The notes below the pieces were generated by a model. It saw only the letters and a list, made by a program, of their open reading frames with translations, had not been told where the DNA came from and made no database searches. From positions 124,001 to 188,000 of the forward strand of contig JAJDAC010000048.1 in NCBI GenBank assembly GCA_029262065.1: DNA of 64,000 nucleotides, read 5' to 3'. The DNA is from Candidatus Krumholzibacteriota bacterium (lineage in GTDB: Bacteria > Krumholzibacteriota > Krumholzibacteriia > JAJRXK01). Both the position numbers and the translations under genes were made by a program. This document shows positions 56,732 to 62,770 of the stretch, piece by piece (within the stretch, counting starts at the first letter, position 1; each line of letters starts with the position of its first letter).

Positions 56732-57439
56732 CTAGCGCCACTTCAGTAGCAACGTGCGCGGATCCAGTTCGATGAACAGGTTGCTCACGTGGCTGTTGTC
56801 GTGGTCTTTCAGCAGCTCGAGTTTTACGTGGTCGGCGGCCGGATCCAGACGGACCATGACCGACAGGTATTCTTCGAACCGAGCCAGGAAGTTGGGCACG
56901 CCGCGCTCGTCGCATTCGTCGTCTCGCTGCGTGCGGCAGTTCAGCCACATTTCGCAGTTCAGTTCGACGGCCAGATCCTTGAAGGCTCGTATCTCGTCTT
57001 CGGTGTTGTGCCGGAACTGCGGGTAGCCGTCGACTACCATGCAGTAGGGCTCGAAGTGCATGAGCTCGCGGGCCATATCGATGGCCGCGCGCATCTTGTC
57101 CATCGAAAACGCACCGTTGGTGTACGTGTGGATAATGCGATTGCGTTCGACTTCCAGATGCACCCCGGCACGATTTTCCAGTTTCGTACTCTCGGCCAGG
57201 TCGTGGAACACCTCGTCGTAGAATGCGCGGACCTTGTCCAACGGATCCTCGGTGTTGATGTGCAGCACCTTGCGGTCGCGCATCAGATCGTCCAGTGCCA
57301 CACCCACCAGGAACGCGGTCTTACCCACGCCGGCCCGGCTCATGACTACGCCAACGTTGCCGCGGCCCAGGCCGCCGTTGGTCGAGCGTTCGAACACCCG
57401 CAAGGGGCTGCGCTCGCTGACTTCCTTTTGGTAAACCAT
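56732..57439 (-). CDS. RecA/KaiC-like P-loop ATPase of unknown role
   Basis: This is a 235-residue protein. GGLGRGNVGVVMSRAGVGKTAFLVGVA (split here: GGLGRGNVG, then VVMSRAGVGKTAF) resembles the RadA/KaiC Walker A region, with GVGKT at 37-41 and Ser in place of the usual first Gly or Ala. HINTEDP and the strand CMVVDGY look like Walker B. The second half carries ELNCEMWLNCRTQRDDE. There is no zinc finger or Lon-like tail, so it is not RadA itself. It starts 13 bp after the fusA stop with a full AGGAGG, so it is in the fusA transcript. I do not recognise a named family. Confidence 0.78.
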   Translation of the reverse strand: MVYQKEVSERSPLRVFERSTNGGLGRGNVGVVMSRAGVGKTAFLVGVALDDLMRDRKVLHINTEDPLDKVRAFYDEVFHDLAESTKLENRAGVHLEVERNRIIHTYTNGAFSMDKMRAAIDMARELMHFEPYCMVVDGYPQFRHNTEDEIRAFKDLAVELNCEMWLNCRTQRDDECDERGVPNFLARFEEYLSVMVRLDPAADHVKLELLKDHDNSHVSNLFIELDPRTLLLKWR

Positions 57440-57452
57440 CGATCGACGCCTC

Positions 57453-59555
57453 CTAATTGGTGGATCCCGCTGCGCGTTTTTCCAGGAACTTCTCGCGTAG
57501 GCCCTCAGCTATATCGTTGGGAGCCTTACCGTAGCGCGCGAACTCCATGGAGAACTCGGCCTTACCTTGTGTCGAAGAGCGCAGAACGGTCGCGTAACCG
57601 AACATCTCCGCCAGCGGCACTTCAGCCTCGACGCGCACGAATCCGTCGTCTTCGGTCGTTCCAACCACCATGCCGCGTCGCTGCATCATGGTGGCCAGGA
57701 TCTCGCCCTGGAACTCGCTGGGGCCTTCCACCGAAACCATCATGATGGGCTCGAGGGCCACCGGCTTTGCACTCAGATAGTACTCGCGGAAGGCGCCGCG
57801 ACCGGCCGCCTGGAACGCGTTGTCGCTACTATCCACGGCGTGAGAGCTACCGTCGGTCAGCTTTACGCCGATTCCCACGACCGGGAACCCGATGTACTCA
57901 CCCTTGCCCAGGCAGGCCTTGAAACCCTTTTCCACCGAGCTGATGTACTCGGTGGGGATGTTGCCACCCACGACCTTGCTCTCGAACGAGAACTCGCCTT
58001 CGTCGATGGGTCCCATGGTTCCCATGATCTTTCCGTACTGACCCGAACCACCCGTCTGCTTCTTGTGCGTGTAGTTGAAGTCCACGGTCTTGGTAATTGT
58101 TTCGCGGTAGGCCACCTGCGGCTTACCGGTGGTCACCTCGGCCTTGAACTCGCGTTTCATACGTTCGACGTAAACCTCGAGATGCAACTCGCCCATACCG
58201 GCGATGATGGTGTCGTTGGTTTCCTCGTCGAGGTACGTGCGAAACGTGGGGTCTTCCTTGGTGAAGCGTTGCAGCGCCTTGGACATGTGATCCTGGGCCT
58301 TCTTGTCCACCGGGACCACGGCCAGCTTGATGACCGGATCGGGTACGTGGATCGACGTCATCGAAGCGGCGACGCTGCCATCGGTGAACGTGTCACCTGA
58401 TGCGCAATCGATTCCGAACAACGCGACGATGTCGCCAGCCGAAGCCTGTTCGATGTCTTCCATCTGGTCGGCATGCATACGAGCCAAACGTCCCACCTTC
58501 ACGCCCTTGGTGGTGCGTGAGTTGTAGATCGTGTCGCCCTTCTTCAAGGTGCCCTGGTAGATACGCACGTACGTAAGCTGTCCGTACGGGCTGACCTCCA
58601 GTTTGAATGCCAACGCGATGAGGGGCGAGTCGGGGTCTACCTTCACCTCGAACGTGGTCTCTTCCTCTTTGTCGACGAGGATGGCCTGGTTCGTCACGTC
58701 GGTGGGATTCGGCAGGTACGCCAACACTGCGTCGAGCAGAAGTTGAACGCCGCGGTTCTTGTAGGCCGAGCCCATGAAGACCGGGGTGACTTCGCGCGAG
58801 ATGGTGGCGGCGCGTACCGCTTCGTAGATGAGCTCCGGAGTAACCTGCTCTTCGAGCATGGCCTCGGTCAGGTTGTCGCTGAACATCGAAACCGCGTCGA
58901 GCATGACCTCGCGTCGAGCCTCGGCCTCGGGCAGCAGCGCGGCGGGGATATCGCCTTCGATGATCTGCTCGCCGTTTTCACCGCGGAAGGTGAACGCGCG
59001 CATGGTGACCAGGTCGACCACACCCTCGTGTTCGGCTTCCAGGCCAATGGGAATCTGCATCATGACCGCGTTGCGCTTGAGCTTCTCACGCAACTGATCG
59101 GCCACGCGTGCCGGATTGGCGCCGCTGCGGTCGCACTTGTTCACGAACGCGAGGGCCGGAACGTTGTAGCGACGCATCTGCCGGTCCACCGTAATGGATT
59201 GGCTTTGGACGCCGGCTACCGCGCACAACACCAGCACCGCACCGTCGAGCACGCGCAGCGCACGTTCCACCTCGATGGTGAAGTCCACATGGCCCGGAGT
59301 GTCGATGATGTTGATGTGGTGATCTTTCCACGTACAGTGCGTAGCCGCACTGGCAATGGTGATCCCGCGCTCGCGCTCCAGCTCCATGGAGTCCATGGTG
59401 GCGCCGATGCCGTCCTTTCCACGAACTTCGTGGATGGCGTGGATGCGATCGGTATAAAAAAGGATTCGCTCGGTCAGCGTGGTCTTACCTGAATCGATAT
59501 GCGCGCTGATCCCGATGTTGCGAAACTTCGAGAGTTCGGGAGTCCCCTTGCTCAC
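57453..59555 (-). CDS. fusA: Elongation factor G, mitochondrial (EF-G1/spdEFG1) type
   Basis: This 700-residue translational GTPase moves tRNA and mRNA through the ribosome. The start is GTG 59555 with AGGAG eight bases upstream; the open frame to 59720 is not coding. G1 is AHIDSGKTT (18-26), followed by [35 protein letters not shown] and NKCD at G4. [27 protein letters not shown] and [13 protein letters not shown] match mitochondrial EF-G1 and its bacterial spdEFG1 relatives rather than the common AHIDAGKTT form. It is not in a str operon here. A P-loop ATPase gene follows. Confidence 0.96.
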
Positions 59556-59786
59556 TGTTCCTGCTCCTGAATGAGACCTTCTCGTCGGCCGACAGAGGCC
59601 GACGGATATCGGCAGTTCTGGACCTAAACCGCCGCAATATAGCGCCTGACCAGGGAATGGCAAGGGCACCAGACATATTAACCGTTGCCCAGGGTGCCGC
59701 GGGCGCGGATCCTGGGGCAACGGGATTTCATGGAAGCGGGGGGTCGGGGTCGGACCCGGGTTTCGGGCCCGACCCGTTAGGTTGGA

Positions 59787-59867
59787 TCAGCCAGCCAGCG
59801 CGTGAGCCGCGACCAGCCATATGGCGGTGATGGTAAGAGCCGCCATCTGGAGTTTCCTCTGACGCAT
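59787..59867 (-). CDS. 26-residue single-span membrane microprotein
   Basis: ATG 59867 is preceded by GAGGAGG with a six-base spacer, one of the strongest ribosome sites in the window. The peptide begins MRQRKLQMAAL, runs through a hydrophobic stretch (TITAIWLVAA) and ends HALAG before TGA. The basic N-terminus and about 16 hydrophobic residues predict a positive-inside transmembrane helix. It lies between fusA and the TPR-like gene on the minus strand, transcribed separately from fusA's start by about 230 bp. It has no known family; it could also be a leader peptide. Confidence 0.55.
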   Translation of the reverse strand: MRQRKLQMAALTITAIWLVAAHALAG

Positions 59868-60029
59868 GGTCTTCCTCCTCAATGAATCCGGCCGTGCGAG
59901 CAGCCAGACTCGATGCATGGATTAGAGGTTTGGAGGTCGATCAAGACCCCGTAATTGTACCATGTGGCGAAAGTGCGGTGCAAATTGCTTAATATCAGTG
60001 GGTTACAACGTCACGCCGGCGGCTCTGGG

Positions 60030-60554
60030 GTGGCCTGGAGTCCGGCGTTTCTGGCGACCGTGGCGTTCGTGAGCGCCATCTGGGGTCTCGCGGTCGCGCC
60101 CGCGCAGGCCCAATCGGAGTCGGCCCAGGTGATCATCGCCCAATCCATGTACGACCGCGGCGACTTCCAGGAAGCGGCCGAAACCCTCGAGCGCCTCCTG
60201 CGCCGAGGCCGTCCGGCCGCCGAAGATCGCCTCACCGCCGGCGTAATCCTGGCCAGGTCGTTCACCCAGCTGGGCAAACAGGGCGCCGCCCAACAGGCGT
60301 TCCTGGGAGTGCTGCGACAGAACCCCGAGTGGAAGCCCGAACCCAACTGGCCGGCCAATGAACGCGGAGTAGCCCGCGCCGCCGCCGTGGAGTTCGCCGT
60401 GAGACAAGCCGAAGGGCTCGAAGAAACCCCAACCAACGCGGTGGAGCAGGGGGCCCAGGCAAGTCCGGACGCCGGAGACAATTGCGGCAAATGGTGGATA
60501 TGGCCCGCCGCCGGCGCAATTGCCATAGGCGGTCTGTTGGCTGCGTTGTTGTAG
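60030..60554 (+). CDS. Exported TPR-like protein with C-terminal membrane anchor
   Basis: This is a protein of about 174 residues. GTG 60030 begins a signal peptide (AWSPAFLATVAFVSAIWGLAVAPAQA). A TTG start at 59955 is also possible, and neither site has a good Shine-Dalgarno. The mature part, AQSMYDRGDFQEAAETLERLLRRG and LARSFTQLGKQGAAQQAFLGVLRQNPEW, is TPR-like. The C-terminus WWIWPAAGAIAIGGLLAALL is a transmembrane anchor. Proteins of this shape often accompany surface or secretion complexes. It converges with the M48 gene. Confidence 0.75.
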   Translation: MAWSPAFLATVAFVSAIWGLAVAPAQAQSESAQVIIAQSMYDRGDFQEAAETLERLLRRGRPAAEDRLTAGVILARSFTQLGKQGAAQQAFLGVLRQNPEWKPEPNWPANERGVARAAAVEFAVRQAEGLEETPTNAVEQGAQASPDAGDNCGKWWIWPAAGAIAIGGLLAALL

Positions 60555-60576
60555 GTCGCACAACCGAAGACCGCGA

Positions 60577-62055
60577 CTAAATCCCTCCACCCCCACGAAC
60601 CAGCACCTTCATGATCTGCCCCGGCCGAACAATCGACTCCAAGCTCATCCCGTTCATCAACGCCAACCCCGCCTCATCGACCTCCGCCCCTGCGGGCAGC
60701 GGGTACCTGGACACGAATTCCGAAAACGGCCCGTTCACCGTGGACTCCACGATGCTCAGCCGAATCGGCTGCACGTTCAGTCGCGACGGGTCGGAAAGGC
60801 CAGCGAAACCGTCGGCCGGTTGGATCAAGACGTTGCGGAACTGCGTGTAGCTGTCATCGGTCGTCAAGCCGTGGAATATGAACACGCGACCGCCGCGCTC
60901 GATGAACGTGGATACGACGCGTTGCGTCTGCTGCTCGGTGGCGATACTGGCTTCAATGCGAACCGCGGGCGCGCCGTTGATGTTCAGGTTCTTCCGCGAT
61001 TGCACCGTGAGTCCTTCTTGCTGTGCGAACGCATCGGCGGCCGCGCCCACGTTGGCCTGTGAAGCCAGCTGCATGAGTACGGCTGCGTCCTGCTCGGGTG
61101 AAACCACCGTCACCTGGGTACGGCCGTTCTGCAGTTTCCAGTTGGCCGGCACGGGAAATTTGAAGGCCAGCTCGGGATGGTAGAACACACCGTCAGCCAC
61201 GTAGCCTTCGCGCGGGTTCGAGCCGAAAGTAAGGCCGTCGAGCTTGCGTAGGAACTCCTCGCGGTTACGACGATAGGTAGCACGCCCAACCTGTTGCTGC
61301 TGCAGGCCGGTTAGATGCAACACGGTATCGTAGCGCTCGCCCGGGTCGGGATGGGTGCTGGCCCACGACGGCAGTCGCCCGCCTTCGCCGCTCAGCGCCG
61401 ACAGCGTACCGAAGAACGATGCCATGTTCGTCGTGTCGTACCCCAGCTTCGTGGCGTATTCCACGCCGAGCTGGTCCGACTGCCGTTCGTCGTCGCGTCC
61501 GTATTTCAACAGCAGAAGTTGTCCCGCGCCGCCGGCGACGCCTGCGTATTGCGCAAACGTGTCGCTCAGCACCGAGCCCAGGCCCAGTCCCAGTCCGAAC
61601 AACGCCTGCTGGGTGTACCGTTGGGCGCCGTGGCGCGCGGTCACGTGACCGATTTCGTGCCCCATGACTCCGGCCAGCGCGCCTTCGTCCTGCAGATAGG
61701 CCAGGATGCCACGCGTGATGTAGACGTATCCCCCCGGCAGGGCAAACGCGTTCACCACCGGGTCGTCGAGCAGGCGAAAGTGAAAGTCCAGGTCGGGCAG
61801 ATGGCTCACCGGCACCATGTTCTCGCCGATCTGTTCGACGTAGGCAGCGAGCTGGGGGTCATCGTACACACCGTACTGTCCGACGATGGCCTGATCGCTC
61901 TCGGCCCCGATCTGGAGCTCCTGGCCCTCGCTCAGCAAGCTGAACTCACGACGACCGGTCACGGGGTTGGTGGCGCAGGCCTCGAGCATGAGGCACCCGA
62001 TCAACGCGAGCGAAAGAGTGCAGGCCGGCCGCAGCCGGCTCGAAAGGCGATTCAT
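60577..62055 (-). CDS. M48-family metalloprotease, lipoprotein
   Basis: This is a 492-residue protein; ATG 62055 has AGGAG ten bases upstream. The signal ends in the lipobox LEAC with Cys27. Zinc motif HEIGH (133-137) and the third-ligand block DDERQSDQLG are those of periplasmic M48 proteases such as BepA/YfgC and LoiP. A C-terminal domain (about 300-490) contains HPELAFKFPVPANWKL and ends with MSLESIVRPGQIMKVL, a common M48 tail. Likely roles are quality control of outer-membrane proteins or the envelope. The upstream 295-bp gap to vanZ holds repeats and a terminator. Confidence 0.93.
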   Translation of the reverse strand: MNRLSSRLRPACTLSLALIGCLMLEACATNPVTGRREFSLLSEGQELQIGAESDQAIVGQYGVYDDPQLAAYVEQIGENMVPVSHLPDLDFHFRLLDDPVVNAFALPGGYVYITRGILAYLQDEGALAGVMGHEIGHVTARHGAQRYTQQALFGLGLGLGSVLSDTFAQYAGVAGGAGQLLLLKYGRDDERQSDQLGVEYATKLGYDTTNMASFFGTLSALSGEGGRLPSWASTHPDPGERYDTVLHLTGLQQQQVGRATYRRNREEFLRKLDGLTFGSNPREGYVADGVFYHPELAFKFPVPANWKLQNGRTQVTVVSPEQDAAVLMQLASQANVGAAADAFAQQEGLTVQSRKNLNINGAPAVRIEASIATEQQTQRVVSTFIERGGRVFIFHGLTTDDSYTQFRNVLIQPADGFAGLSDPSRLNVQPIRLSIVESTVNGPFSEFVSRYPLPAGAEVDEAGLALMNGMSLESIVRPGQIMKVLVRGGGGI

Positions 62056-62149
62056 GGGCAAATGTCTCCTGATGAGCGGATTGGCGTATCGAGGGGCTTG
62101 GTTGAACCCTAGTGCCGCAGTCGGCAGCTCACAAGGGAGAAGGCATCCA

Positions 62150-62204
62150 GGGGGGCACTGGGATAGGACAACCCGGGGGGCACCGGGATAGGAACAACCC
62201 GGAG
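62150..62204. repeat. Two copies of a 25-26-bp direct repeat
   Basis: GGGGGCACTGGGATAGGACA plus ACCCG is followed directly by a copy that differs by one substitution and one inserted A. The pair lies in the M48-vanZ intergenic region with no open frame. It is a local duplication; no function is evident. Confidence 0.75.
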
Positions 62205-62225
62205 GGGAGGGGGGTTCCGGGCACG

Positions 62226-62259
62226 AAAAAGCCGGGTGCACTCGCCAGGCACCCGGCTT
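62226..62259 (-). terminator. Terminator of the mqnE-vanZ unit
   Basis: On the minus strand AAGCCGGGTGC pairs with GCACCCGGCTT (11 bp) around a 9-base loop, followed by five T residues. It lies about 90 bp beyond the vanZ stop. Confidence 0.7.
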
Positions 62260-62350
62260 GCCTCCGTAGGATCCGGGCGGATCGGGAGGTGTCCCACGAA
62301 ACGACCTTCTCGCCGGGTCGTTCCGCGTTAGTGGTATACGCGCGAAACCG

Positions 62351-62770
62351 TCAGTGGGTTTCGGTGGTAGACCGTGGCTTCGCATAATTGTGACAAGTGG
62401 CAAGTAGAACGGCGCCGGCCGCGTTCAGCGTCATGTCGATCAGCGAAAAGAACCGACCTGGTACGTAGTACTGGTGCACCTCATCCAGGGCACCGTAGAC
62501 AGAGGCAACGATGACGGCAATGACGAGGTGCCGGCGCGTCGTGCTCGACCAGGCGGACATCGCCCGCACGAGCAGAAAAGTAAGCCCGGCGTAGGCGGGG
62601 ATGTGCAGCAGGTTGTGCCACCGCGGTTCCAGCAGCATCATGCGCCGACCCAGCACGTCCTGTGTGTCATCGGGAATGGAAGACAGGGCGAACAGTCCGC
62701 CCATATAGGCCAGGGCCAGGACCGTCCATCCGGCCCGCCAGGCTCGTGCCGGTTCAGGCGAGCGCGCCAT
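62351..62770 (-). CDS. VanZ-family membrane protein
   Basis: This 139-residue protein has about four transmembrane helices. The VanZ signature is ALDEVHQYYVPGRFFSLIDMTLNAAG, and WHNLLHIPAYAGL precedes it. VanZ proteins confer low-level teicoplanin resistance in enterococci, but most family members have unknown roles. Its start overlaps the end of mqnE by 17 bp, so the two are cotranscribed. Confidence 0.9.
   Translation of the reverse strand: MARSPEPARAWRAGWTVLALAYMGGLFALSSIPDDTQDVLGRRMMLLEPRWHNLLHIPAYAGLTFLLVRAMSAWSSTTRRHLVIAVIVASVYGALDEVHQYYVPGRFFSLIDMTLNAAGAVLLATCHNYAKPRSTTETH

What the first reader, a model, noticed from the sequence alone, without database searches (positions are those of the whole stretch)
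59787..59867. 26-residue membrane microprotein with an ideal ribosome site
GAGGAGG six bases before ATG is stronger than the site of most genes here. The peptide has a basic start and one hydrophobic helix, like known regulatory small membrane proteins or type I toxins. No longer gene uses that ribosome site.
Basis: seen in the sequence. Interest (0 to 1): 0.5.

Follow-up and report, generated by a model that had tools for sequence, protein, structure and literature searches.

The report
Orphan signal-peptide-like short reading frame
A 26-residue reading frame with a very good ribosome site and the look of a bare export signal sits upstream of fusA in an uncultured bacterium, but no examined relative shares it, so it is either a young small membrane peptide, the stump of a lost exported-protein gene, or chance.

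Summary
On the minus strand at 59867..59787 an ATG frame encodes MRQRKLQMAALTITAIWLVAAHALAG, with GAGGAGG six bases upstream. The ribosome site alone is not beyond chance: 1 strong-site frame of 20-60 aa in the window against 0.83 in shuffles. Strong site plus ATG, basic start and hydrophobic stretch is unusual: 1 in 1.26 Mb of this genome against 0.007 in shuffles, with thresholds set after seeing the sequence. The peptide reads as a Sec signal peptide (basic start, hydrophobic core, ALA before the last Gly) without a mature protein. It is an orphan: a search of 80 genomes of the phylum found at E up to 0.5 only itself and one signal-peptide resemblance (E 0.23). In three same-family genomes the M48 protease gene runs directly into fusA, without this frame or the neighbouring TPR gene. 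Two hairpins and a fusA promoter with counterparts in relatives lie between it and fusA, so it is probably not a fusA leader. Consensus scans saw no antisense promoter; no toxin family matched. Best reading: a lineage-specific single-helix membrane peptide; a decayed exported-protein gene is the close rival. Low interest.

The parts
59787..59867 (-). 26-aa frame MRQRKLQMAALTITAIWLVAAHALAG, TGA stop; n-region RQRK, hydrophobic residues 8-26, ALA|G end
   Evidence: G+C by codon position 0.63/0.52/0.70 over 27 codons
59874..59880 (-). ribosome site GAGGAGG, 6 bases before the ATG
   Evidence: pairing energy -11.5 kcal/mol with a recalled anti-SD
59954..59984 (-). weak promoter-like boxes (TTTGCA-19-TACAAT, 9 of 12; TTGCAC-18-TACAAT, 8 of 12), -10 ending 86 bases before the ATG; chance level (46% of shuffles of this region hold such a site)
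59741..59775 (-). GC-rich hairpin starting 11 bases after the stop, 12-bp core with one mismatch, no T run
59682..59723 (-). second GC-rich hairpin, 20-nt arms 80% complementary, followed by TTAATAT
59636..59663 (-). fusA promoter-like TTGCCA-16-TATATT, with a counterpart upstream of fusA in relatives
57453..59555 (-). fusA (elongation factor G), downstream
59964..60554 (+). divergent TPR protein gene (start codon uncertain), also absent from this spot in the three same-family genomes
60577..62055 (-). M48 metalloprotease gene, directly upstream of fusA in relatives (start codon read by eye)

Best explanation
It is a lineage-specific small membrane peptide gene with its own short transcription unit. 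Shown: strong ribosome site, ATG, 26 codons, hydrophobic segment after a basic start, hairpins after the stop, a fusA promoter-like site downstream of them, absence from the same spot in three relatives. Inferred: a promoter in the divergent spacer towards the TPR gene makes a transcript of roughly 200-270 nt ending at the hairpins; the basic start stays in the cytoplasm and the helix is inserted by the Sec/YidC route like a signal peptide; with nothing after the ALA|G site the product stays as a single-helix membrane peptide or is cleaved before its last residue. Its physiological job is not shown; most likely it binds or perturbs a membrane partner in this lineage only.
For: Ribosome site and frame. 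The combination of ATG, strong site, 20-40 aa, hydrophobic stretch and basic start occurs once in the intergenic DNA of 1.26 Mb and 0.007 times in shuffles. Given the ATG, 1 of 20,000 local shuffles gave so hydrophobic a 20-60 aa frame. In this genome GAGGAGG-N4-9-ATG occurs 53 times against 21 for the reversed control, and 37 of 54 starts so marked open frames of 100 aa or more, so the site is a used signal. Two hairpins and a fusA promoter-like site separate it from fusA. The frame has coding-like codon-position G+C (0.63/0.52/0.70); the 77 codons after it do not (0.66/0.64/0.58).
Against: No homologue at E up to 0.5 in the other 79 genomes of the phylum search except a signal-peptide resemblance at 0.23; none in phages or plasmids at E up to 10. 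Absent from the gap in three same-family genomes. Promoter-like boxes at chance level. The ribosome site is mostly paired in the four predicted folds. Looser criteria give 1 observed against 0.25 expected. Only 26 codons, so codon bias says little. The 16S tail of this genome was not found. No transcript or translation data.
Confidence: 0.4

Rival explanations
1. Stump of a lost exported-protein gene: the ribosome site and signal peptide of a secreted protein or lipoprotein remain, the rest was deleted or decayed. The peptide ends LAG just where a lipoprotein would have Cys, or one residue after an AxA cleavage site.
For: The best non-self match is the signal peptide of a lipoprotein in G059 (63% over 24 residues, E 0.23; I read the protein as fasciclin-like from recall). 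Of the 37 GAGGAGG starts opening 100 aa or more, 19 have a hydrophobic stretch (15-residue mean at least 1.6) in their first 40 residues, so this site is common on exported or membrane proteins here. The gene content of the M48-fusA gap differs from relatives.
Against: No Pfam match in the DNA after the stop, alone or read through, no coding bias in frame and none clear in the other two phases. No second copy in the genome of which it could be a fragment. A hairpin begins 11 bases after the stop, which fits a real gene end.
Confidence: 0.27
2. Chance: a spurious frame in the spacer between the TPR gene and fusA that happens to have a good ribosome site.
For: Strong-site frames of 20-60 aa are expected 0.83 times per window by chance, and strong-site short frames are not enriched in this genome (10 observed against 24 in shuffles). 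No homologue. Promoter boxes at chance level. The reversed control suggests about 21 of the 53 GAGGAGG-N4-9-ATG are chance.
Against: Hydrophobic stretch and basic start together with the site are rare in shuffles (0.007 per 1.26 Mb).
Confidence: 0.25
3. Type I toxin of a toxin/antisense-RNA pair, acting like ShoB or TimP on the inner membrane.
For: Size and composition fit (ShoB is 26 aa, passages of PMC8309996; TimP is a 38-aa toxin with an uncleaved signal sequence, passages of PMC7667032). By my reading of the folds the ribosome site pairs with a CCTCC/CCTC run in the leader, as in some toxin mRNAs (recalled).
Against: No promoter-like site on the opposite strand at either threshold. Single copy. 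No toxin or defence family match.
Confidence: 0.06
4. The UGA is read as selenocysteine: the genome has tRNA-Sec and SelB and a hairpin follows the UGA.
For: SelB 354 bits and tRNA-Sec 71.6 bits, both over cut-off; hairpin 11 bases after the UGA.
Against: Read-through would run 77 codons without coding bias straight into fusA and matches no family.
Confidence: 0.02

Closest known systems
TimP (Salmonella small inner-membrane protein, repressed by sRNA TimR)
   Same: Very short, with a hydrophobic segment that reads as a Sec signal sequence (PMC7667032, abstract and passages).
   Different: 38 aa with residues after the signal, Leu at -3 (cleavage unfavourable), found in other enterobacteria, and an antisense-type sRNA upstream on the other strand; here 26 aa, Ala at -3, orphan, no antisense promoter-like site seen.
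ShoB/OhsC and IbsC/SibC type I toxins of E. coli
   Same: 26- and 19-aa hydrophobic peptides (PMC8309996, passages).
   Different: Paired RNA antitoxins and shown membrane depolarisation; neither is shown here.
Sec and lipoprotein signal peptides of Krumholzibacteriota exported proteins
   Same: Basic n-region, hydrophobic core, ALAG end; 63% over 24 residues with one in G059.
   Different: No mature protein follows; a stop codon stands where the lipobox Cys would be.
Other single-helix small membrane proteins (KdpF, CydX, MgtS; recalled)
   Same: Size and topology type.
   Different: Those sit with or regulate a known membrane complex; the neighbours here are EF-G, a TPR protein and an M48 protease.

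Membership tests
Type I toxin-antitoxin systems | antisense or small RNA antitoxin gene overlapping or adjacent | tested here: inconclusive
   No promoter-like site on the + strand at 9 of 12 (59400-60700) or 8 of 12 (59700-60050); consensus scans cannot rule out an RNA.
Type I toxin-antitoxin systems | short hydrophobic peptide with a membrane helix | tested here: met
   26 aa, residues 8-26 mean hydropathy 1.75; no dedicated helix predictor was run.
Type I toxin-antitoxin systems | toxicity on expression | not testable with these tools
   needs experiment
Type I toxin-antitoxin systems | sequence match to a known toxin or defence family | tested here: not met
   PADLOC, NCBIfam and PHROGs none for the 26-mer; Pfam only TraQ at E 0.058, below cut-off.
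Exported protein with signal peptide | n-, h- and c-region with small residues at -3 and -1 | tested here: met
   RQRK / hydrophobic core / A-L-A|G, by reading; no SignalP run.
Exported protein with signal peptide | mature part after the cleavage site | tested here: not met
   Stop one residue later; downstream DNA lacks clear coding bias.
Lipoprotein | lipobox cysteine | tested here: not met
   LAG followed by a TGA stop.
fusA leader peptide / attenuator | shared transcript with fusA | tested here: inconclusive
   Two hairpins and a fusA promoter-like site with counterparts in relatives lie between them; read-through not excluded.
Selenoprotein | coding sequence continuing after UGA | tested here: not met
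   Frame continues open into fusA, with G+C by position 0.66/0.64/0.58; no Pfam match.
Selenoprotein | SECIS element after the UGA | tested here: inconclusive
   A hairpin is present; the Rfam scan of 57000-62500 listed no match at E up to 1; no dedicated bacterial SECIS search was run.

The most novel reading that the evidence does not exclude
A recently born, single-lineage membrane peptide gene: a bare signal-peptide-like helix with a near-optimal ribosome site, made from a divergent spacer that appeared together with the TPR gene when the ancestral M48-fusA gap was opened in this lineage, possibly held off by pairing of its ribosome site with the CCTCC/CCTC run in its own leader.
Probability: 0.15. 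Interest if true: 0.35.

Novelty: new member of a known kind. Interest (0 to 1): 0.15.

Why it matters
If translated, it adds one lineage-restricted small membrane peptide from an uncultured phylum and a case of a signal-peptide-only gene, a possible intermediate in gene birth or gene loss. If not, it illustrates that a strong ribosome site before a short frame is weak evidence by itself: such frames are not enriched here over shuffled DNA.

Tried and rejected
fusA leader or attenuator: set aside because hairpins and a fusA promoter-like site intervene. Hairpin as a genome-wide repeat: no match with up to 3 mismatches of the pattern used, but by its fixed spacing that pattern missed the window's own hairpin too, so the test is void. 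DNA search of 80 class genomes with 301 bases: 68 of 80 had matches at E up to 1, short pieces of mostly under 45 bases, best non-self E 0.001; the listing was cut. Among them is a 28-base match over the ribosome site and start in same-family G002 (L007, E 0.003), where the printed DNA has no GAGGAGG. Several matches at query 100-129 recur; in the two I read (L018, L020) they fall on the ribosome site and start of a gene that I recognise from recall as rpsC. I take these for chance likeness. TPR homologues with a divergent short hydrophobic frame: none among the seven homologues inspected (L135-L141 of 10 non-self matches); a few non-hydrophobic short frames with ribosome-like sites are listed there. 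Selenocysteine reading: machinery present, frame not coding. The 16S tail pattern was not found in this genome, so the anti-SD is a recalled consensus. Literature: searches (10 of 36 papers listed; 6 of 6; 7 of 7; 8 of 50) list no title on small proteins of Krumholzibacteriota; I read no paper on that phylum.

Full report
What is there. On the minus strand, 59867 to 59787 is an ATG frame of 26 codons, MRQRKLQMAALTITAIWLVAAHALAG, ending in TGA, with GAGGAGG six bases before the ATG. An in-frame ATG at 59918 would extend it to 43 residues but lies upstream of the ribosome site. The genome belongs to Krumholzibacteriota by its fusA: the two closest named relatives are Candidatus Krumholzibacteriia and Krumholzibacteriota MAGs at 78 and 76%.

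Is it more than chance? Ribosome site alone: no. In the window's intergenic DNA (5.9 kb by my own gene calls) one frame of 20-60 aa has a site of -11 kcal/mol or better, shuffles give 0.83; at -9 or better 2 against 4.4. In 1.26 Mb of the genome (six further stretches plus the window, 134 kb intergenic), 10 frames of 15-60 aa at -11 against 24 in shuffles; adding a hydrophobic 15-residue stretch (mean 1.8 or more) 1 against 0.25, or at -8 5 against 2.25. Requiring ATG, 20-40 aa and a site of -10 or better, 3 frames are seen against 6.2; with the hydrophobic stretch 1 against 0.053; with a net charge of +2 or more in the first seven residues 1 against 0.007, that is one event in 150 shuffle rounds. 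Given the ATG, 1 of 20,000 local shuffles gave a 20-60 aa frame as hydrophobic, none with a basic start as well; the local DNA is G+C-rich, which probably lowers that figure. All thresholds were chosen after seeing the peptide. I judge it unusual, not proven.

The ribosome site as used in this genome. GAGGAGG-N4-9-ATG occurs 53 times against 21 for the reversed pattern. My recount around these places gives 54 starts (three ribosome sites are counted with two ATGs each): 37 open 100 aa or more, 9 open 26 aa or less, this one included. Not all 37 need be genes. Of the 37, 19 have a hydrophobic stretch (mean 1.6 or more) in their first 40 residues, so strong sites are common on exported or membrane proteins here.

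Signal-peptide character. Basic n-region, hydrophobic core, and A-L-A before the last Gly. In the phylum search (80 genomes, E up to 0.5) the only non-self match is the signal peptide of a lipoprotein in G059 (63% over 24 residues, E 0.23). In one search, 3 of 38 genomes matched at E up to 1: itself and two at E 0.88; one (L003) falls at the C-terminal part of a long frame that reads like a dihydrolipoamide dehydrogenase (label recalled), the other (L002) I saw only as DNA. Phages and plasmids gave no match at E up to 10. Pfam gave only TraQ at E 0.058, below cut-off; NCBIfam, PADLOC, PHROGs and the PDB gave nothing for the 26-mer.

Neighbourhood in relatives. All 38 genomes have EF-G-like matches at E up to 1e-100. 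In the three same-family genomes held (G001, G002, G003; fusA 78, 76 and 77% identical) the M48 protease gene runs into fusA on the same strand with gaps of 230, 161 and 435 nt. In these gaps the only frame with a hydrophobic stretch of 1.2 or more is an 83-aa frame on the opposite strand in G003, without a strong site. The TPR gene is missing there too, and its 10 other matches in 80 genomes are weak (E 1e-8 to 9e-4). So both the TPR gene and the short frame are additions of this lineage, or losses in the others. No genome closer than family level was returned, so this cannot separate a young gene from a decayed one.

Transcription. Two hairpins (59741-59775 and 59682-59723) lie between the stop and fusA, neither with a T run that the terminator scan accepts. 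Below them a promoter-like TTGCCA-16-TATATT has counterparts in the six other loci examined: TTGCCG-16-TATCTT or TACCTT, and TTGCCT-17-TAGATT, starting 77-158 bases before fusA (no shuffle control was run for this). L024/L105 and L025/L107 look by eye like the same genomes twice, so there are about four independent relatives. fusA therefore probably has its own start. For the short frame only chance-level boxes exist. The 291-nt stretch folds better than shuffles (z -4.7), driven largely by the hairpins in my reading; the ribosome site is mostly paired in the four folds tried, by my reading of the brackets largely with a CCTCC/CCTC run in the leader.

What it is. The evidence favours a lineage-specific signal-peptide-like membrane peptide (0.40), then a stump of an exported-protein gene (0.27), then chance (0.25). 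A type I toxin has only size and composition on its side (0.06). The selenocysteine reading was tested because the genome has SelB and tRNA-Sec and a hairpin follows the UGA; the downstream frame lacks coding bias and runs into fusA.

Known parallels. TimP of Salmonella is a 38-aa inner-membrane toxin whose signal sequence, not cleaved, places it in the membrane (PMC7667032, abstract and passages). ShoB is a 26-aa hydrophobic toxin (PMC8309996, passages). Hydrophobic short proteins selected from random sequence can act in cells (PMC10065794, abstract and passages). These show that such a peptide could work; none shows that this one does.

Noticed in passing
window 59964-60554 (+): TPR protein gene with weak resemblance to TssQ-family T6SS lipoproteins (E 0.0022, below cut-off); several homologues in other class members lie beside FHA, lipoprotein and TssK-like genes (recalled labels). 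It stands alone here, and I saw no good ribosome site before its possible starts.
   Followed up: partly
window 59636-59663 (-): fusA promoter-like TTGCCR-16-TAYNTT has counterparts upstream of fusA in relatives although the gene order around it differs.
   Followed up: partly
G000:C17:51993-52084 and G000:C58:35488-37347: tRNA-Sec and SelB over cut-off in this genome and in the 6 relatives searched: selenocysteine decoding may be general in this group.
   Followed up: no
G000:C12:29571-31631: An EF-G paralogue (35% to fusA) is reported with one in-frame TGA.
   Followed up: no
G000:C22 about 78338-79632 (in L246): A 54-aa small membrane protein frame with a good ribosome site and strong helix (MGKFGYSATLLKEFFRFARAHKAYW...), perhaps a known small family (recalled: DUF5989-like).
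   Followed up: no
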